IMG/VR virus record: IMGVR_UViG_3300041016_001238
Coordinates: 1 to 32,874 of that record
Source: a virus
Reading direction: 5' to 3' (one strand)
DNA length: 32,874 nucleotides
Numbering within the stretch: position 1 is the first letter of the stretch; every line of letters starts with the position of its first letter. Of the stretch, positions 8,176 through 19,600 are shown piece by piece. The notes under the pieces were generated by a model. That model saw only the letters and a program-made list of their open reading frames with translations. It searched no databases and was not told the origin of the DNA. The position numbers were made by a program, and so were the translations under genes.

Positions 8176-8424
8176 ATGATATCATTGTTTTTAACAGCGA
8201 CTCTTTTCTTTACTTCTCAAGGGAACATAATAAATTTAGATCTTGTAAAAGAGATCGTTTTAAAAGAGGTAAAAGATGAGTATAGTGGGTATGCAGTTGG
8301 AATGCTTATTGGGGATCACGTGTATTGGCATCGCATTGTTTGCATTCAGGACTTAGAAAATTTTTTCATTCAAAACTTCAAGTCCCCTTTTTTAATAAAT
8401 AACCAAGAAAGGAAAGTGGAATGA
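8176..8424 (+). CDS. Small secreted or membrane-anchored hypothetical protein
   Basis: 82 residues, with AAAGGA eight bases before the ATG. The N-terminus is hydrophobic (Ile-Ser-Leu-Phe-Leu-Thr-Ala-Thr-Leu-Phe-Phe) and could be an uncleaved signal or anchor; the rest is a soluble mixed domain. The stop overlaps the start of the lipoprotein gene downstream (ATGA), so the two are probably translated together and act in the envelope. Such two-gene envelope pairs in phages can be spanins, but the N-terminal membrane segment is weak and no coiled coil is evident. Confidence 0.5.
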   Translation: MISLFLTATLFFTSQGNIINLDLVKEIVLKEVKDEYSGYAVGMLIGDHVYWHRIVCIQDLENFFIQNFKSPFLINNQERKVE

Positions 8425-8624
8425 AATATTTAATAGTATTATTACCTTTGTTAACAAGTTGCGCAATAGCTTCAGGCGTATCAGGTTTTTCTGCTGTATC
8501 AGGAGTTGCTATAGAAGCTAAAAGATTAGATAGCGAAGGTGAAGATCGCATTATCGCTAAAGTTATTAAAGATTTGCAGGATATTAAAGAGTTACAAGTT
8601 ACTCACATAATCCATCAGTATTAA
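8421..8624 (+). CDS. Small lipoprotein
   Basis: 67 residues with a clear lipoprotein signal: Met-Lys, a hydrophobic run, then Leu-Leu-Thr-Ser-Cys14. After the lipid Cys there is a small-residue stretch (Ala/Ser/Gly/Val) and then a charged helix of about 35 residues. The start overlaps the previous stop by four bases. An outer-membrane-attached lipoprotein encoded by a phage may be an o-spanin-like lysis factor or may block superinfection. The sequence does not decide. Confidence 0.6.
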   Translation: MKYLIVLLPLLTSCAIASGVSGFSAVSGVAIEAKRLDSEGEDRIIAKVIKDLQDIKELQVTHIIHQY

Positions 8625-8769
8625 CCAGCTAATTGAGATAATAATAGCGATTCTTGGTTTAAGTCCAAGTCCCTAATATTTAACTTTAATCATATTTTAT
8701 TTTTGTAAAAGCAAACATTTCTAAATATTAGATACATACGCTATATTTCTTCTTAAAATAAGGAAATAA

Positions 8770-8985
8770 ATGATTGATAATACAATGTTTGAGTTAACGG
8801 TAATCTTAAAAGACGATGAACGTACTTTCAAACAAAAATTCATAATCTATGAATTAACCACCCTTTCTGAAAAAGATCCTCAAGTTATCAACTGCGTAAA
8901 AGAAGCAAAGAAAAACTTTCGAGGACCTGTAACTGCAATTTTAAAATTTAGCATGGAATTTCAAGCAGATTTTCTTAATGATTGA
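8770..8985 (+). CDS. Hypothetical protein (71 aa)
   Basis: A small soluble protein with AAGGA upstream of the ATG. The pattern of alternating strand and helix (Phe-Glu-Leu-Thr-Val-Ile-Leu-Lys-Asp, then Val-Lys-Glu-Ala-Lys-Lys-Asn-Phe, then Thr-Ala-Ile-Leu-Lys-Phe) suggests one compact domain. No family recognised. The 145-base gap before it (8625-8769) holds no gene I can support. Confidence 0.45.
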   Translation: MIDNTMFELTVILKDDERTFKQKFIIYELTTLSEKDPQVINCVKEAKKNFRGPVTAILKFSMEFQADFLND

Positions 8986-9008
8986 AAAAAAATCAAATCG
9001 CAAGTATG

Positions 9009-9036
9009 TTAAAATTAAAAACTAAATCTATATAAT
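9009..9036 (+). promoter_or_regulatory. Possible promoter before the small-gene/terminase cluster
   Basis: -10 TATAAT (9031-9036, consensus) with TTAAAA (9009-9014) 16 bases upstream. It would drive 9061 onward into the packaging genes. The region is very AT-rich, so chance is a real alternative. Confidence 0.35.
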
Positions 9037-10286: not shown

Positions 10287-11801
10287 ATGAAAGACCTTCT
10301 TGCCCCCAAACAATTAGAATTTGTCCTAAATGCCCAAGCTAAATGGAATATAGCGCATGGTTCTGTACGTTCTAGCAAGACTGTATGCACCCTGTTTGCT
10401 TTTATGATGGAAGCTTCTAAATGCCCAGACAGCCAAATATTTATGGTAGGACATACTAGTGATACAATCTATCAGAATGCTGTTAGGTTACTGCTAGAAT
10501 CACCTCTATTCTCTATATTTAAGCCATATTGCACATGGTATTCAGGGAAAAGACAACTGAAGTTTAAAGATAAAACGATATGCACGTTAGGTGCCAAAGA
10601 CGATGGTGCGATTGGTCAATTTCAAGGGAAAACTATGTCTTTAGTCTATTGCGACGAGATGACTTTATATCCGGATGCAATTATAGACATGATTGATACT
10701 CGCTTATCTAATGCGTGGAGTATGGGTTTTGCTAGCATGAACCCTAGCCATCCAACTCATAAACTCAAACAATGGATAGATAAATCCGAAACTAATGATC
10801 CAAACTATTATGCTCTACATTTTACATTGGATGACAATCCTTATGTTGATGAGGCTTACAAACAACGCATAAGAGATTCTCTTTCGGGGCTATTTTATAA
10901 GAGAAATTATCTCGGTTTATGGTGCCTGGCAGAAGGTGCTATTTTTGACTTCTTTGACAGAAAGATACATGTGGTGCGTAAACCACCTTGTGCCGCTGAG
11001 TATTGGATTGCTGCTATCGACTATGGAACAGTTAATCCGTTCTGTTGTCTGATTATAGGTGTGTCAACAGGAAAGTATACTCAAACAGGAAAGCGTCTGT
11101 GGGTAGAGAAAGAGTTCTACTGGGATCCCAAAGCTCAAGGTAGGCAGAAGACAAACTCAGAGTTCGCAGATTGTGTGCAAGAGTTTATAGAACCCTACTC
11201 AATTAAGAGTCTTTACCTTGATCCATCTGCAGAAGCGTTCCAACTTGAACTCCGTCGCAGAGGTATCCACGTTGTTCATGCTAACAACGCCGTAGAAGAT
11301 GGTATACAGATGATGACTAGCGAGATGAAGAAAGGCAACCTTTATGTTTGCGAAGAGTGTGTGAACACCATTAGGGAGATAGAGAGCTATGTATGGGACC
11401 CTAAAGCTGCTCAAAGGGGTGATGATATACCCATGAAGAAAGATGACCACGCATGTGTGGTTGGGGATACGGTTATACAATTAGAAGATGGCGAGTATTA
11501 TGTGGGAGAACTTGCCGGTATAATAGATTGGAACAAAAACAATCCTAACTATGAAAAAATACCAAAGATTCTTAACTACAATCTGGATCAGAAAGAAATA
11601 CAACTGGATTCCGTTTTAGATGCTGGCATGACAAGATTGAATGCTGATATTTGGGAATTAGAATTAGAAGACGGAAAAATTCTACAAGCTACGGGTGATC
11701 ATAAAATAATGACCCAAAGAGGATATATCGAATTGCAACAATTGACTCTATCCGATATGATAATGGTATGCAACTCACCGATGAGAAAAGAGAATGGTTA
11801 A
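10287..11801 (+). CDS. terL: Terminase large subunit, N-terminal part fused to N-intein half
   Basis: Residues 1-389 are a PBSX-type large terminase. ATPase: Walker A Gly-Ser-Val-Arg-Ser-Ser-Lys-Thr (25-32), Walker B ending Asp123-Glu124, coupling motif Ala-Ser-Met-Asn-Pro (about 150). Nuclease: Asp245 in Ala-Ile-Asp-Tyr-Gly, Asp312 in Leu-Asp-Pro-Ser-Ala, and the start of the third acidic motif Asp-Asp-His-Ala. There the intein begins: Cys390-Val-Val-Gly-Asp-Thr-Val (block A), with block B Thr469-Gly-Asp-His472. It stops at 504 after 115 intein residues. The missing final 35 terminase residues are on 12000-12224 in the same frame. Together they give a 424-residue terminase, normal for the family. 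The motor packages DNA into the prohead through the portal. Confidence 0.93.
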   Translation: MKDLLAPKQLEFVLNAQAKWNIAHGSVRSSKTVCTLFAFMMEASKCPDSQIFMVGHTSDTIYQNAVRLLLESPLFSIFKPYCTWYSGKRQLKFKDKTICTLGAKDDGAIGQFQGKTMSLVYCDEMTLYPDAIIDMIDTRLSNAWSMGFASMNPSHPTHKLKQWIDKSETNDPNYYALHFTLDDNPYVDEAYKQRIRDSLSGLFYKRNYLGLWCLAEGAIFDFFDRKIHVVRKPPCAAEYWIAAIDYGTVNPFCCLIIGVSTGKYTQTGKRLWVEKEFYWDPKAQGRQKTNSEFADCVQEFIEPYSIKSLYLDPSAEAFQLELRRRGIHVVHANNAVEDGIQMMTSEMKKGNLYVCEECVNTIREIESYVWDPKAAQRGDDIPMKKDDHACVVGDTVIQLEDGEYYVGELAGIIDWNKNNPNYEKIPKILNYNLDQKEIQLDSVLDAGMTRLNADIWELELEDGKILQATGDHKIMTQRGYIELQQLTLSDMIMVCNSPMRKENG

Positions 11802-12116
11802 GACAATGGATGGAGGTTATCCGTCCTATGACTAAAGAATGGCATTCTAGTGAAGAAGGGATGGAATGGCACCGTAAACATGGAATTGAATGTTGGAAGT
11901 CTAAGAAAGAAATAACCATAAAGTGTAAGGAATGCGGAAAAGAGGCCATTACAAAGGTTTATCATCAGAAATTCTGTCACGCAAATTGCAAGGCTAAATA
12001 TGGACGTAGAATACGTAAAAATAAAATCAGTTAAAAGACTTGGTGAGAAAGCAAATGTATACTGTTTGACTACAAACAACGGTAACTTTGTTGCTAATGG
12101 CATAGTTGTCAAGAAC
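11454..12116 (+). mobile_element. Split intein in terL with an embedded homing-nuclease ORF
   Basis: N-half 11454-11801 (115 codons from Cys1), C-half 12000-12116 (39 codons ending Lys-Asn, followed by Cys+1). The two halves total about 154 residues, the size of a mini-intein, and the break is at the usual site between the B and F blocks. The C-half has its own ATG and AAGG six bases before it. Between them an ORF in the -1 frame encodes a zinc-finger protein of the kind found in inteins. Block F is atypical: Cys22 where Asp is common, no His before the Asn-Phe, and Lys instead of the usual His next to the final Asn. Splicing would therefore need testing. Confidence 0.85.
11768..12034 (+). 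CDS. Intein-embedded homing-endonuclease-like zinc-finger protein
   Basis: 88 residues, in a different frame from both flanking intein halves. It overlaps the N-half end by 34 bases and the C-half start by 35. It has an N-terminal helical Trp-rich part (Glu-Trp-His-Ser-Ser-Glu-Glu-Gly-Met-Glu-Trp-His, about 25-36) and a C-terminal zinc finger Cys-Lys-Glu-Cys ... Phe-Cys-His-Ala-Asn-Cys (about 53-75). The same pair of segments occurs inside contiguous phage inteins that carry HNH-type nuclease modules (from memory). A complete His-Asn-His catalytic core is not evident, so it may be an accessory DNA-binding module or a remnant. The frame was open without a stop from 11705. Confidence 0.65.
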   Translation: MQLTDEKREWLRQWMEVIRPMTKEWHSSEEGMEWHRKHGIECWKSKKEITIKCKECGKEAITKVYHQKFCHANCKAKYGRRIRKNKIS

Positions 12117-12224
12117 TGTGATGCCCTACGTTACGCAATTTTTAGTCATAAAGTAACTAAATATGAACCATACAAACATTCCCCAGATGAATACAAAAAT
12201 AATAGATTTGGAGGATTTCGTTAA
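12000..12224 (+). CDS. terL: C-intein half fused to the terminase large subunit C-terminus
   Basis: 74 residues. 1-39 are the C-terminal intein half (Val-Tyr-Cys-Leu-Thr, then Asn-Phe-Val-Ala-Asn-Gly-Ile-Val-Val-Lys-Asn39). 40-74 are the end of the terminase, starting Cys40-Asp-Ala-Leu-Arg-Tyr-Ala, which completes the catalytic motif Asp-His-Ala|Cys-Asp-Ala-Leu-Arg-Tyr begun at 11445. Without splicing, the N-terminal product lacks the third nuclease carboxylate and the last 35 residues. The start ATG is inside the 3' end of the zinc-finger ORF with an AAGG six bases upstream; the nearest in-frame stop upstream is at 11919. A good ribosome site argues for deliberate separate translation. Confidence 0.88.
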   Translation: MDVEYVKIKSVKRLGEKANVYCLTTNNGNFVANGIVVKNCDALRYAIFSHKVTKYEPYKHSPDEYKNNRFGGFR

Positions 12225-16589: not shown

Positions 16590-17108
16590 TTATTTATGAA
16601 ATCTAGTGCTTCTTCTATTATTTGCTTGTTGAATTCTATTTGCCCAACGACAATTTTGTTTGCAATAATTTCTATCATTATCAATGCGATCAAGTTGCAT
16701 TCCTTCCGGACGTTCACCCATGTCCGATAGAAATTCTGAAAAATCATTCCATTCTTCACATACTTTTATTCCACGACCTCCATAATCAGAAAATTGACGG
16801 TCATTAAAATCATTGCATCTTTGTCTCATTGCCACCCAAATTGAATATATCCTATCTCTGCCCTTTGTCCTAGATGCACATCCATGTTTATAGGCATAAT
16901 GATCGGTACCCTTTTTAGTATTTTTCTTAGCGGAACAACTTTTACAAGGACGATTTTGTGTTCGTAAATATGAACCATTTAACATAACTACATCTCCACA
17001 ATCACATTGGACTTTGTAAATTATGTAACCATTTTTCCTTTCTGGCATTTGTTCAATTATCCTTCTGGTACCAAATCTCGTTCCAATAAGTAAATCTTTT
17101 CTATACAT
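16590..17108 (-). CDS. Free-standing HNH homing endonuclease
   Basis: 172 residues from ATG 17108, which has GGAA eight bases upstream (the frame extends further to 17147). It is a phage HNH homing endonuclease: an N-terminal small domain with Cys-Asp-Cys-Gly and Cys-Lys-Ser-Cys pairs (zinc site, about 37-60), then Tyr-Ser-Ile-Trp ... Arg-Cys-Asn (about 87-100), Tyr-Gly-Gly-Arg-Gly-Ile-Lys-Val-Cys-Glu-Glu-Trp, and the ββα-metal core Gln-Leu-Asp-Arg-Ile-Asp-Asn-Asp-Arg-Asn-Tyr ... Asn-Cys-Arg-Trp-Ala (about 137-157). It sits on the minus strand between scaffold and coat, 185 bases before exon 1 of the intron-split coat gene. It is a likely partner of the endonuclease-less intron 1. Confidence 0.88.
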   Translation of the reverse strand: MYRKDLLIGTRFGTRRIIEQMPERKNGYIIYKVQCDCGDVVMLNGSYLRTQNRPCKSCSAKKNTKKGTDHYAYKHGCASRTKGRDRIYSIWVAMRQRCNDFNDRQFSDYGGRGIKVCEEWNDFSEFLSDMGERPEGMQLDRIDNDRNYCKQNCRWANRIQQANNRRSTRFHK

Positions 17109-17293
17109 AAATAATTTCCATGCTATATTTAAGATACGCACGCACAAGCGTTATGTGCATAAAGATCTATCTAGCTAATAGATCATCGCGTAAGAAGGAT
17201 CGCATCTTCGTCCGATATGATCGAGAACCGACGTAGTTAGGCTCGTCAACCGATCATCATATCATTGTTTAACGACAATAAGAGGATTTTCTC

Positions 17294-17386: not shown

Positions 17387-17628
17387 AAACCATTTGCATA
17401 ATACAATGCAATATGTAGTTCTAAAACCTTTCCTGATTGACTCGGAAACCTAAAGCGAAAGCCATGGCAACGAGGGGCAAGTTTAAATACAGCCTGAACG
17501 ACTGAGCGGAAGGGCCCGTAAGGGATGCAACAGTCTGAGCAACGAACGAAAGTCGTTGAGGTTGATCCGAAGAGGTTGACCCGCCATATTGCCTTAATTG
17601 ACAAAATGGTCATAAAAGTAACAGTATG
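17387..17628 (+). ncRNA. Group I intron 1 in the major capsid gene (no ORF)
   Basis: 242 bases. P1 forms between exon AACTAT (17381-17386) and guide GTAGTT (17415-17420), with an extra hairpin TTGCAT/ATGCAA (17394-17411) inside the P1 loop. Core: P/Q-like region about 17440-17498, R-like element with GACTG (17500-17504), S-like element with CAGTC (17531-17535) pairing as P7, then a P9 hairpin CAACGA (17540-17545)/TCGTTG (17553-17558). The 3' end is placed at G17628 because this restores the coat frame and gives exactly the residue spacing of coat homologues as I recall them. It shares architecture with intron 2. Boundaries: 5' strong, 3' inferred. Confidence 0.85.
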
Positions 17629-18180
17629 ATTACAGTTTGTGACAAGGTTTCCATGCCCGCCAATGGCGGAACAACAATGCGCTTTATGAGACCAAGAGCG
17701 CTTACTCCACCTACAGTGCAGCTGGGTAACGCTGGTATTGATCCTCCAGCACAAGTGCCACAACGCGACATCATTGATGCGCAAATGGCGTTTTTTGGTA
17801 CTGGTTGCATAATTAACGAACAAGTTATTTTGCAAGATCAAGAGGGTGTACTTGCTTGGGTATCTGAACGTCTTGCCGTAGCGATGCGTCAAGCAGAGGA
17901 TTTGATCCTCCGCGACTACATCGTATCTGCAGCGTCACAGATCAATGCAGGCGGTGGTTCAAACGGCGACAATCCAACTAACCTTGGACTCTCCGACTTT
18001 AGTTTGGTAGCGACAACACTCGATACTAATAATGCTTATAAATTTATGAGCGGTATCGAGGGTATGGATCGCTTCGGCACAGGCCCTATTAGAAGTTCGT
18101 ATTTCATGCTATCTAGCACTGAACTGCAAACCGATTTTGATGGTCTTGTAGGCCAAGGTGTTCTAAACAATTGGAACTAT
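17629..18180 (+). CDS. Major capsid protein, exon 2
   Basis: Codes for residues 32-215. It contains Met-Pro-Ala-Asn-Gly-Gly-Thr-Thr-Met-Arg-Phe (40-50), Gly-Asn-Ala-Gly-Ile-Asp-Pro-Pro, Ile-Ile-Asn-Glu-Gln-Val, Gln-Ala-Glu-Asp ... Arg-Asp-Tyr-Ile-Val-Ser, Gly-Gly-Ser-Asn-Gly-Asp-Asn-Pro-Thr and Gly-x-Asp-Arg-Phe-Gly-Thr-Gly-Pro-Ile-Arg, a sequence landscape typical of HK97-fold coat proteins of the N4 gp56-like family. An ATG at 17626 straddles the intron end and is not the gene start. The exon ends Trp-Asn-Tyr at AAC TAT (18175-18180). Read on past this point, the frame stops at 18240. Confidence 0.88.
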
Positions 18181-19276
18181 CAACAATTGGGTAGTTTTAA
18201 AATCTCTGGTAATTATCAAGAACACCTACAGGCTGCATAAGCCCAAGGCAACTTGAAGGAAGAATATTAAATTGAGTTTAGATGTTTAATTTGAGTGATG
18301 AGACTATACATCCGATCGCGATCAACAATAGGACGATCAACATTTCTAATTTTTTTAGGAAATTGAATAAATTCCAAGAAAAGTTGGCATTGATCTCCCT
18401 TGATTTTCAAAAAAGGGTATATAGATTCGCAAACAAATTTTTCATAAATAGTTTTTGGCGACCATTTGAAGATAGTATTTACTGGTCTTTTGCAAGAGAC
18501 AACAGTACCAGAAATTCTATCGTTAATATGACGAATTGCTTCAGGAAATATATTTGCAACAGACAGTTGATGAGCGAATCTTTTTGCAAGAGTTTGCTTA
18601 TTGAAATGTTCATAACAAACAAAATTTCCATCTCCATCGATAAATCCCGCAAGCCATTCAAAAAAGTGGTTTTCGATTGGTTTTTTCACAGGAGGAAGAA
18701 TAGGAGTAAGGTTAAGCCAAGGTTGTTTGAATGCTTTGAGAGTACTACAAGTTATTGCTCGCGTGTCTTTTCTGTTTTTTCTAGGTTGATTGAGATAATC
18801 TTTCAATCTAAGAAGTTGAGGACGTTTTACAATGGACAAATCGGAAATAGAATCAATGAAGAAAATGGCTTGATCGGAGATAGAATTAATCTTCCAAGTC
18901 CATGTTTTCTTTCTCTTATCTCTTTTCCTAGTGTAAATACAACCTCCAAACTTTTCTTTAAAAAGATTAGGGATTGCTTCGTTTGCCATTTCAAGGGCTA
19001 TTGTAAAAGCTCCATTAGGACACAAAGAAACGTAACCTTCAGCATCAAACAGACCTGCAAAATAGTGCATAGTAAACTCAATTCGTTATGTGGCAAATTA
19101 CATTGCAACATAATTGATATTCGCCTGCAACGACTAAATCCAGGGACTCAAGGATGAATTCTTTGAGATGCCATAGTCTGAACACTATTCGAAAGGTAGT
19201 GAGGGAAGGTCGAAGAGCCATCCCCGCCATATTAATGATATGGTCAGTAGGATTAAATTCCGAAAGTAACAGCCAG
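18181..19276 (+). ncRNA. Group I intron 2 in the major capsid gene, carrying a LAGLIDADG gene
   Basis: 1096 bases. P1: exon AACTAT (18175-18180) with guide GTAGTT (18191-18196). P10: TTGG (18187-18190) with exon 3 CCAA (19277-19280). P7: GACTA (19132-19136) with TAGTC (19174-19178); the R-like element is around 19124-19140 and the S-like element, CATAGTCTGAACA, around 19172-19184. P9: CACTA/TAGTG just after. An 11-base perfect inverted repeat, AATTGAGTTTA (18270-18280) and TAAACTCAATT (19073-19083), closes a peripheral loop that holds the endonuclease gene. Both splice sites are supported by pairing and by restoration of the reading frame. Confidence 0.9.
18267..19070 (-). CDS. LAGLIDADG homing endonuclease (intron-encoded, antisense to its host gene)
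   Basis: 267 residues with two LAGLIDADG motifs: Phe-Ala-Gly-Leu-Phe-Asp-Ala-Glu-Gly (4-12) and Leu-Ala-Gly-Phe-Ile-Asp-Gly-Asp-Gly (140-148). It is therefore a monomeric double-motif enzyme, and each motif keeps its acidic metal-binding residue (Glu11, Asp147). Length is normal. The gene is on the strand opposite to the coat gene and fills the loop closed by the intron's 11-base inverted repeat, so it can be expressed without disturbing ribozyme folding. It should cut intronless coat alleles near the AACTAT/CCAACA junction to spread the intron. Confidence 0.9.
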   Translation of the reverse strand: MHYFAGLFDAEGYVSLCPNGAFTIALEMANEAIPNLFKEKFGGCIYTRKRDKRKKTWTWKINSISDQAIFFIDSISDLSIVKRPQLLRLKDYLNQPRKNRKDTRAITCSTLKAFKQPWLNLTPILPPVKKPIENHFFEWLAGFIDGDGNFVCYEHFNKQTLAKRFAHQLSVANIFPEAIRHINDRISGTVVSCKRPVNTIFKWSPKTIYEKFVCESIYPFLKIKGDQCQLFLEFIQFPKKIRNVDRPIVDRDRMYSLITQIKHLNSI

Positions 19277-19600
19277 CCAACAAATGCTTCTGCTCTTCCT
19301 AGTGAATGGGGTTCCGTATTCAACGTACGTATCCTTACAAGCTCTGAAGCTCCAGTAGCTCGTGGTGCAAGTGCTAATAGCAGCGACGTGTATTACAATA
19401 CAGTTGTTGGTAAACAAGCGATCACACATATTAATCAGGACGGCTTTAGCATGAATCTGATTTATCGTGATCCTTACTATTCTGGCATGTTGGCACAAAA
19501 TGCTACTCTTGCAGTGAAGTTTGCGCAAGCACAAGCTATTACGCAAGATACAGCTATTAGAAACCTATTAAGCACACGCTTAAGCAATTTGGGAGTATAA
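19277..19600 (+). CDS. Major capsid protein, exon 3
   Basis: Codes for residues 216-322, starting Pro-Thr-Asn-Ala-Ser-Ala-Leu-Pro-Ser-Glu-Trp-Gly-Ser-Val. The spliced junction Asn-Asn-Trp-Asn-Tyr|Pro-Thr-Asn matches the pattern of coat homologues at this point. Later Val-Gly-Lys-Gln-Ala, His-Ile-Asn-Gln-Asp-Gly-Phe-Ser, Tyr-Arg-Asp-Pro-Tyr-Tyr and Ala-Val-Lys-Phe-Ala-Gln-Ala follow the usual C-terminal order. The three exons total 969 bases (322 residues). The frame upstream of 19277 is open by chance and must not be read as coding. The next gene starts two bases after the stop. Confidence 0.88.
   Translation, partial: PTNASALPSEWGSVFNVRILTSSEAPVARGASANSSDVYYNTVVGKQAITHINQDGFSMNLIYRDPYYSGMLAQNATLAVKFAQAQAITQDTAIRNLLSTRLSNLGV

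What the first reader, a model, noticed from the sequence alone, without database searches (positions are those of the whole stretch)
10287..12224. Large terminase fractured by a split intein with a homing-nuclease-like ORF between the halves
Seen: terminase residues 1-389 run into Cys390-Val-Val-Gly-Asp-Thr (intein block A) and block B Thr-Gly-Asp-His, then stop at 11801. The C-intein half and the last 35 terminase residues restart at an ATG with AAGG at 12000. An 88-residue Trp-rich zinc-finger ORF in the -1 frame overlaps both ends (34 and 35 bases). Known: fractured genes with split inteins and intervening homing endonuclease genes have been described from environmental phage data, in other genes and with other nuclease types. 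Inference: this is a three-ORF, mutually overlapping version in a packaging motor, where the overlaps couple translation of the three products.
Basis: partly seen in the sequence, partly recalled or inferred. Interest (0 to 1): 0.9.

Follow-up and report, generated by a model that had tools for sequence, protein, structure and literature searches.

The report
Split-intein terminase with gutted homing gene
This virus of bacteria makes its DNA-packaging enzyme as two separate pieces that very probably weld themselves together with a split intein, and the small gene between the pieces is the leftover of a selfish DNA-cutting gene that has lost its cutting part; the same layout, mostly with the cutting gene intact, turns up in dozens of other phages, including two that are cultured.

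Summary
It is not an assembly error. The layout recurs in over 40 other non-redundant terL loci, among them the related contig L048 and the cultured phages CL2 and BL3, at the DHx(x)DAxRY nuclease motif; 65 of 68 close terL relatives have the uninterrupted site. Relatives encode 166-207 aa HNH endonucleases there; the window keeps only the zinc-finger part, with the HNH domain deleted in frame. Most likely mechanism: the two TerL halves trans-splice, and the leftover ORF carries ribosomes to the IntC start, which lies inside it. The kind is known ('fractured genes', Dassa 2009), and TerL split inteins are known (AceL/GOS/Cat-TerL), but with another split site. New here: a terL-dedicated HNH family seen free-standing beside terL, between split-intein halves, decayed, and (separate intein lineage) hidden out of frame inside contiguous inteins. 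Trans-splicing itself is untested.

The parts
10287..11453 (+). TerL N-extein, residues 1-389 (ATPase and most of the nuclease domain, ending KKDDHA)
   Evidence: Pfam Terminase_6N 8.4e-12; PHROG 2 and 10250 terminase large subunit; 65 of 68 relatives run straight on into xDAxRY at this point
11454..11798 (+). IntN, N-half of split intein, 115 aa, Cys1, block B ATGDH; stop codon 11799-11801
   Evidence: PF14890 positions 3-95, 5.8e-8; aligned with IntN of L048, L004, L043, CL2
11768..12034 (+). Remnant of an HNH homing endonuclease gene, 88 aa: start codon joined to the WHxxxxGxxWHxxH helices and treble-clef zinc finger; HNH domain deleted
   Evidence: Aligns to residues ~78-160 of the L048 HEN (47% identity), HEN profile positions 71-159; PHROG 15471 HNH endonuclease 1.3e-7; AlphaFold mean pLDDT 92
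11768..11801 (+). 34-nt overlap of IntN end and middle ORF start
11990..11993 (+). Shine-Dalgarno-like AAGG, 6 nt before the IntC ATG
12000..12034 (+). 35-nt overlap of middle ORF end and IntC start; ATG lies in the codons of the zinc-finger KYGRR
   Evidence: same ATG context in L048
12000..12116 (+). IntC, C-half of split intein, 39 aa, ends NGNFVANGIVVKN
   Evidence: PF14890 positions 117-155, 8.1e-8; alignment
12117..12224 (+). TerL C-extein, 35 aa starting Cys+1 (CDALRYA), carries the last Asp of the nuclease HxxD motif; stop included

Best explanation
The locus is a fractured terL gene. A class 1 intein sits in the nuclease motif of TerL, between the His and the Asp of DH-A|C-DALRY. An HNH homing endonuclease gene with its own start codon once inserted into the intein, out of frame, at the usual endonuclease position, so the intein is now two proteins: TerL(1-389)-IntN (504 aa) and IntC-TerL(390-424) (74 aa). 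They associate and trans-splice into a 424-aa TerL; before splicing the N piece lacks a nuclease motif Asp. Later the endonuclease lost its HNH domain by an in-frame deletion, leaving an 88-aa helical and zinc-finger ORF that overlaps both neighbours. That ORF persists probably because the IntC start lies inside it and its translation brings ribosomes there. Shown: anatomy, homology, conservation of layout, loss of HNH. Inferred: trans-splicing, translational coupling, order of events.
For: Both intein halves hit PF14890 in complementary parts, nearest solved intein NrdJ-1 8UBS 3.9e-7. The spliced product rebuilds the motif found uninterrupted in 65 of 68 relatives. L048, 60% identical in TerL, has the same three overlapping ORFs with a complete 166-aa HNH enzyme (HNH_3 PF13392, 6.9e-17). 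44 non-redundant fractured terL loci including the window and CL2 (41 full HEN, 3 partial), none without a HEN trace, plus BL3. Cultured phages CL2 (full HEN) and BL3 (HEN cut to its zinc-finger tail, like the window) carry it, so it is compatible with a viable phage. HEN to IntC frame relation is +1 in 42 of 46, while IntN to HEN takes all three frames. HEN-frame codons differ mostly at third positions against L048 (28/28/46). IntN+IntC tree: mini-inteins are scattered among fractured ones, and L078 is a re-fused intein with an out-of-frame HEN remnant inside a fractured clade.
Against: No splicing, translation or protein data. The intein has Lys where most inteins have the penultimate His, and NGNF for the block F HNF, although this is shared by its clade. 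The middle ORF has no clear Shine-Dalgarno. The small TerL tail might be dispensable or work as a separate chain. The window's own truncated HEN is a single copy, so selection on the remnant after its deletion is not measured separately.
Confidence: 0.85

Rival explanations
1. The intein is really contiguous: assembly errors or two programmed frameshifts (-1 then +1) join IntN, zinc finger and IntC into one chain.
For: IntN and IntC lie in one frame in the window, and contiguous relatives exist (L004, L043). In another lineage the intein does read through an out-of-frame HEN.
Against: Four frame-0 stops in the window, nine in L048; independent contigs and GenBank isolates share the split; IntN-HEN-IntC frames differ between loci, so no common frameshift could join them; IntC has its own ATG with AAGG; I saw no canonical slippery heptamer in 11768-11801 (read by eye).
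Confidence: 0.05
2. The halves do not splice: TerL works as a truncated N piece, or as a two-chain enzyme (like the genes-in-pieces ribonucleotide reductase with an inserted homing endonuclease), and the intein is a relic.
For: The C piece is only 35 aa; a split but working ribonucleotide reductase created by an inserted homing endonuclease is known (cited in PMC10448857).
Against: Cys1 and the block B His are invariant in the 14 aligned IntN, terminal Asn and Cys+1 (rarely Ser) are kept in the fractured loci; the C piece holds the Asp of the nuclease motif, and the corresponding metal-site Asp is indispensable in G20c TerL (PMC5389553; equivalence inferred).
Confidence: 0.07
3. The middle ORF is a packaging cofactor of the HK97 gp74 HNH type rather than a homing relic.
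For: The same HNH family sits beside terL in many phages, and HNH proteins of packaging machines are known (Kala 2014, cited in PMC10448857).
Against: The intact relative hits HNH_3 and PHROG 15471, with I-HmuI (1U3E, E=0.011) as best solved match of the family profile; most terL relatives of the window have no such gene at the splice site; the window copy has no HNH motif; it sits exactly between intein halves.
Confidence: 0.05

Closest known systems
Fractured genes with split inteins and an intervening homing endonuclease (Dassa et al. 2009; PMC2677866, not held, recalled from memory and cited in papers read)
   Same: Host gene broken in two by a split intein at the canonical split point with a free-standing endonuclease gene in between; mainly phage
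   Different: Described, as I recall, for DNA synthesis and repair enzymes with Vsr-like enzymes in about half of the loci; here TerL, an HNH_3 family dedicated to the terL site, and in the window the nuclease domain is gone
AceL-TerL, GOS-TerL, Cat-TerL natural split inteins (PMC11766414, PMC13014065)
   Same: Natural split intein in phage terminase large subunit, Cys+1
   Different: Their IntN is 25-37 aa (atypical split); here IntN is 115 aa and IntC 39 aa (canonical split) with an overlapping HEN remnant between
Hidden out-of-frame HNH in phage methylase, ShiLan domain (PMC11855218)
   Same: HNH endonuclease gene inserted out of frame in a phage gene
   Different: ShiLan has no intein domain and the host frame stays open; the window has a split intein. 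The terL loci with an open intein frame over an HNH gene (L173, TJE1 and others) are closer to it
Brochothrix phage BL3 terL (HM144386)
   Same: TerL-IntN (gp2), HEN reduced to its zinc-finger tail, IntC-TerL (gp3), overlapping
   Different: Annotated only as a terminase and an unnamed ORF; a different truncation that keeps the C-terminal zinc knuckles and none of the N-terminal part

Membership tests
Class 1 intein | Cys/Ser1, block B TxxH, C-terminal Asn, Cys/Ser/Thr+1 | tested here: met
   Cys1, TGDH, Asn39 of IntC, Cys+1; PF14890 on both halves
Class 1 intein | Penultimate His and block F HNF | tested here: not met
   Lys and NGNF instead; shared by the clade; a variation tolerated in some active inteins (own knowledge)
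Split intein (trans-splicing) | Halves on separate ORFs with own starts, complementary domains | tested here: met
Split intein (trans-splicing) | Ligation of the exteins in trans | not testable with these tools
   needs expression
Fractured gene (Dassa type) | Conserved enzyme gene broken by split intein with free-standing endonuclease gene between | tested here: met
   layout met, middle gene homologous to HNH HEN
Fractured gene (Dassa type) | Intact endonuclease domain | tested here: not met
   HNH motif absent in window, present in L048 and CL2; 41 of 44 loci have a full-length HEN match
HNH homing endonuclease | HNH motif | tested here: not met
   Window ORF has no HNH_3 hit; L048 6.9e-17
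HNH homing endonuclease | Cuts the intein-less allele | not testable with these tools
   needs biochemistry
Atypically split TerL intein (AceL/GOS/Cat-TerL) | Short IntN of 25-37 aa | tested here: not met
   IntN 115 aa; family values PMC11766414
HK97 gp74 packaging HNH | HNH motif, required for packaging | tested here: not met
   no HNH motif in window ORF; requirement for packaging not testable

The most novel reading that the evidence does not exclude
One HNH family specialised on the terL nuclease motif shows every step of how a homing gene colonises an intein: free-standing beside an intact terL, next to a HEN-less mini-intein, inside the intein as an out-of-frame gene that fractures it, and (in a separate intein lineage) overprinted by an intein frame kept open. 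The window is the aftermath, in which the endonuclease is dead but its relic is kept by selection because the split packaging enzyme needs it to start translation of IntC.
Probability: 0.3. Interest if true: 0.78.

Novelty: new variant of a known kind. Interest (0 to 1): 0.62.

Why it matters
How inteins gain and lose endonucleases, and how split inteins arise, is known mostly from scattered snapshots. Here one gene site and one endonuclease family give all the states with many independent cases, some in cultured phages (CL2, BL3, TJE1), so the steps can be tested at the bench. Splicing would also gate the nuclease half of a packaging motor, since the intein separates the residues of its nuclease motif. 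The canonical-split TerL inteins could add new split-intein pairs to the protein-ligation toolbox.

Tried and rejected
Assembly error (rejected: independent copies, isolates). Programmed frameshifting (frames differ between loci). Group I intron in terL (no Rfam hit in the window; intein motifs instead). Promoter inside the HEN to drive IntC (10 promoter-like sites found, 11.0 expected by shuffling). Fold search of the 88-aa model against PDB gave nothing significant; weak YacG zinc-finger resemblance only. A genome-contig scan gave only 13 weak hits, among them a Staphylococcus borealis isolate contig of the same length as the L111 record. A 14-row intein alignment was too diverse to scan with. 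Dassa 2009 and Gosselin 2025 (bioRxiv) could not be read, so claims about them are from memory or title only.

Full report
Observation. IntN (115 aa) and IntC (39 aa) each hit Pfam Intein_splicing in complementary halves of the profile (5.8e-8 and 8.1e-8). The nearest solved intein is NrdJ-1 (8UBS, 3.9e-7), itself from a fractured phage gene (that last point from memory). Joined exteins give a 424-aa TerL that matches solved terminases 5OE8/5OEA at 6e-61 through the junction.

Not an artefact. A scan of IMG/VR for the TerL N part gave 68 loci; 65 have the uninterrupted DHxxDAxRY-type motif in frame, three have an intein at the window's position: L004 and L043 as contiguous mini-inteins, L048 as the same three-ORF fractured gene. 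Scans with IntN and with the endonuclease gave many more loci. Classified with profiles on stop-to-stop frames, 44 non-redundant terL loci are fractured (window and CL2 included), 41 with a full HNH gene and three with a partial one; no fractured terL lacks a trace of the HEN, while contiguous inteins found by the IntN scan have no full HEN between their halves. Part of the set was collected by a HEN search, so the proportion of full HENs is inflated; the IntN-based set shows the same association. Cultured phages: Lactobacillus phage CL2 (KR905067) has TerL-IntN, a 207-aa HNH and an unannotated IntC-TerL; Brochothrix phage BL3 (HM144386) has TerL-IntN (gp2), a HEN reduced to its C-terminal zinc knuckles, and IntC-TerL (gp3).

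What the middle ORF is. In L048 it is a 166-aa protein with HNH_3 (6.9e-17) and a following WHxxxxGxxWHxxH plus CxxC...FCxxxC module. The window keeps only the second part: HEN profile positions 71-159, 47% identical to L048. The start codon is joined directly to the region that follows the HNH domain, so the reading frame survived. ATGC occurs at both edges in L048, which suggests a short-repeat deletion (inference). All invariant residues of the remaining module are present, its end branch is no longer than those of other HENs (0.33 against a median of 0.35), third codon positions carry most differences (28/28/46 against L048), and AlphaFold gives a confident two-helix plus zinc-finger fold (mean pLDDT 92). 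It is therefore a homing endonuclease relic, not a nuclease. Similar cut-downs to the C-terminal part are L112/L113, BL3, and L078 where the intein has become contiguous again; L089 is the opposite case (N part kept).

Why the 3' part stays. In 42 of 46 fractured loci IntC is in the +1 frame relative to the HEN, whereas the HEN takes all three frames relative to IntN. The IntC start lies inside the HEN gene in almost all of them; in the window it lies in the codons of KYGRR with AAGG 6 nt upstream, and in L048 the same ATG context is kept. The HEN 3' end and IntC thus travel as one unit, and losing the HEN 3' end would cost the IntC start. That translation is coupled is inference.

Mechanism. 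The intein sits between His and Asp of the DHxxDAxRY motif, in most loci at one of two adjacent positions (DH|C or DHx|C). The Asp side is on the 74-aa piece. In the G20c terminase the metal-site residues include H427 and D429, and D429 is indispensable (PMC5389553); I equate that Asp with the window's Asp391 by motif, not by structure. So the 504-aa piece should be nuclease-dead until spliced.

History. The HEN tree shows fractured HENs intermixed with free-standing members of the family, and most free-standing ones are close to terL: TerL intact, HEN typically 40-100 nt downstream in contigs and in phages such as PAE1, FBPa53 and SN1, beside terL or terS in EauM-23, BP10, Poludnitsa and Shemara. 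L043 has a mini-intein in terL and an HNH of this family 1.7 kb further on. Mini-inteins are scattered among fractured ones on the intein tree (quick tree, few columns), so gain and loss of the HEN recur; L078 lies in a well-supported otherwise fractured clade and still holds a HEN remnant out of frame, which points to re-fusion by deletion. A separate intein lineage keeps the intein frame open through 530-690 bp over an HNH gene in the -1 frame: 18 non-redundant contigs plus Tetrasphaera phage TJE1, Acinetobacter phage Highwayman and Rhodobacteraceae phage LS06-2018-MD07. Zero stops were observed against 3-7 expected after synonymous recoding with pooled codon usage; a weaker within-gene codon shuffle expects 0.5-4.6. 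An out-of-frame HNH in a phage methylase without an intein is published (PMC11855218); whether the intein form is covered by its cited preprint (Gosselin 2025) I could not check.

Comparison. The window belongs to the fractured-gene kind of Dassa 2009 (from memory) by layout, but fails the intact-endonuclease feature. It differs from the known TerL split inteins AceL, GOS and Cat, whose IntN is 25-37 aa (PMC11766414, PMC13014065). Hence a new variant of a known kind. What lifts interest is the family-wide series of states at one site, with cultured representatives. What limits it is that the kind is known and that splicing and coupling are unproven.

Noticed in passing
L173, L174, L175, L181, L184, L190, L191, L196, L204, L205, L206, L208, L212, L216, L217, L220, L223, L226; phages TJE1 (L229), Highwayman (L230), LS06-2018-MD07 (L231): Contiguous TerL inteins whose 530-690 bp linker is fully open in the intein frame and at the same time encodes a complete HNH endonuclease in the -1 frame; hidden and unannotated in the three GenBank phages. 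Some of these contigs were not matched by the TerL profile and were taken as terL by motif only.
   Followed up: partly
L037, L038, L053, L155-L160, L166, L167, L176, L177; phages PAE1, FBPa53, SN1, EauM-23, BP10, Poludnitsa, Shemara: Free-standing members of the same HNH family lie beside an intact terL, in most contigs 40-100 nt downstream of its stop.
   Followed up: partly
L043:6159-6560 and 8398-9018: HEN-less mini-intein in terL with a separate HNH gene of the same family between terL and portal, as expected for collaborative homing.
   Followed up: partly
window 17626-18240 and 19154-19600, with 18267-19070 on the minus strand: Major head protein (PHROG 1357) split into two ORFs by about 0.9 kb that carries a LAGLIDADG endonuclease ORF on the opposite strand; no group I intron reached Rfam thresholds.
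   Followed up: partly
window 16590-17147 minus strand: Free-standing HNH endonuclease ORF (PHROG 374, 1.4e-48), so this phage fragment carries at least three homing-type elements in its head genes.
   Followed up: no
L090, L092, L200 between IntN and HEN: Fractured terL loci with an extra ~550-740 bp before the HEN gene, content not examined.
   Followed up: no
L078:4001-4630: Contiguous TerL intein with the last ~30 codons of a HEN still readable in another frame of its linker, inside a clade of fractured genes: a healed fracture.
   Followed up: partly
L144, L145, L147-L149 and L088: Other fractured genes with the same IntN/IntC split but without this HNH family, in what look like a RecA-like recombinase (L144-L149) and a ribonucleotide reductase (L088), judged from the extein sequence only.
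   Followed up: no
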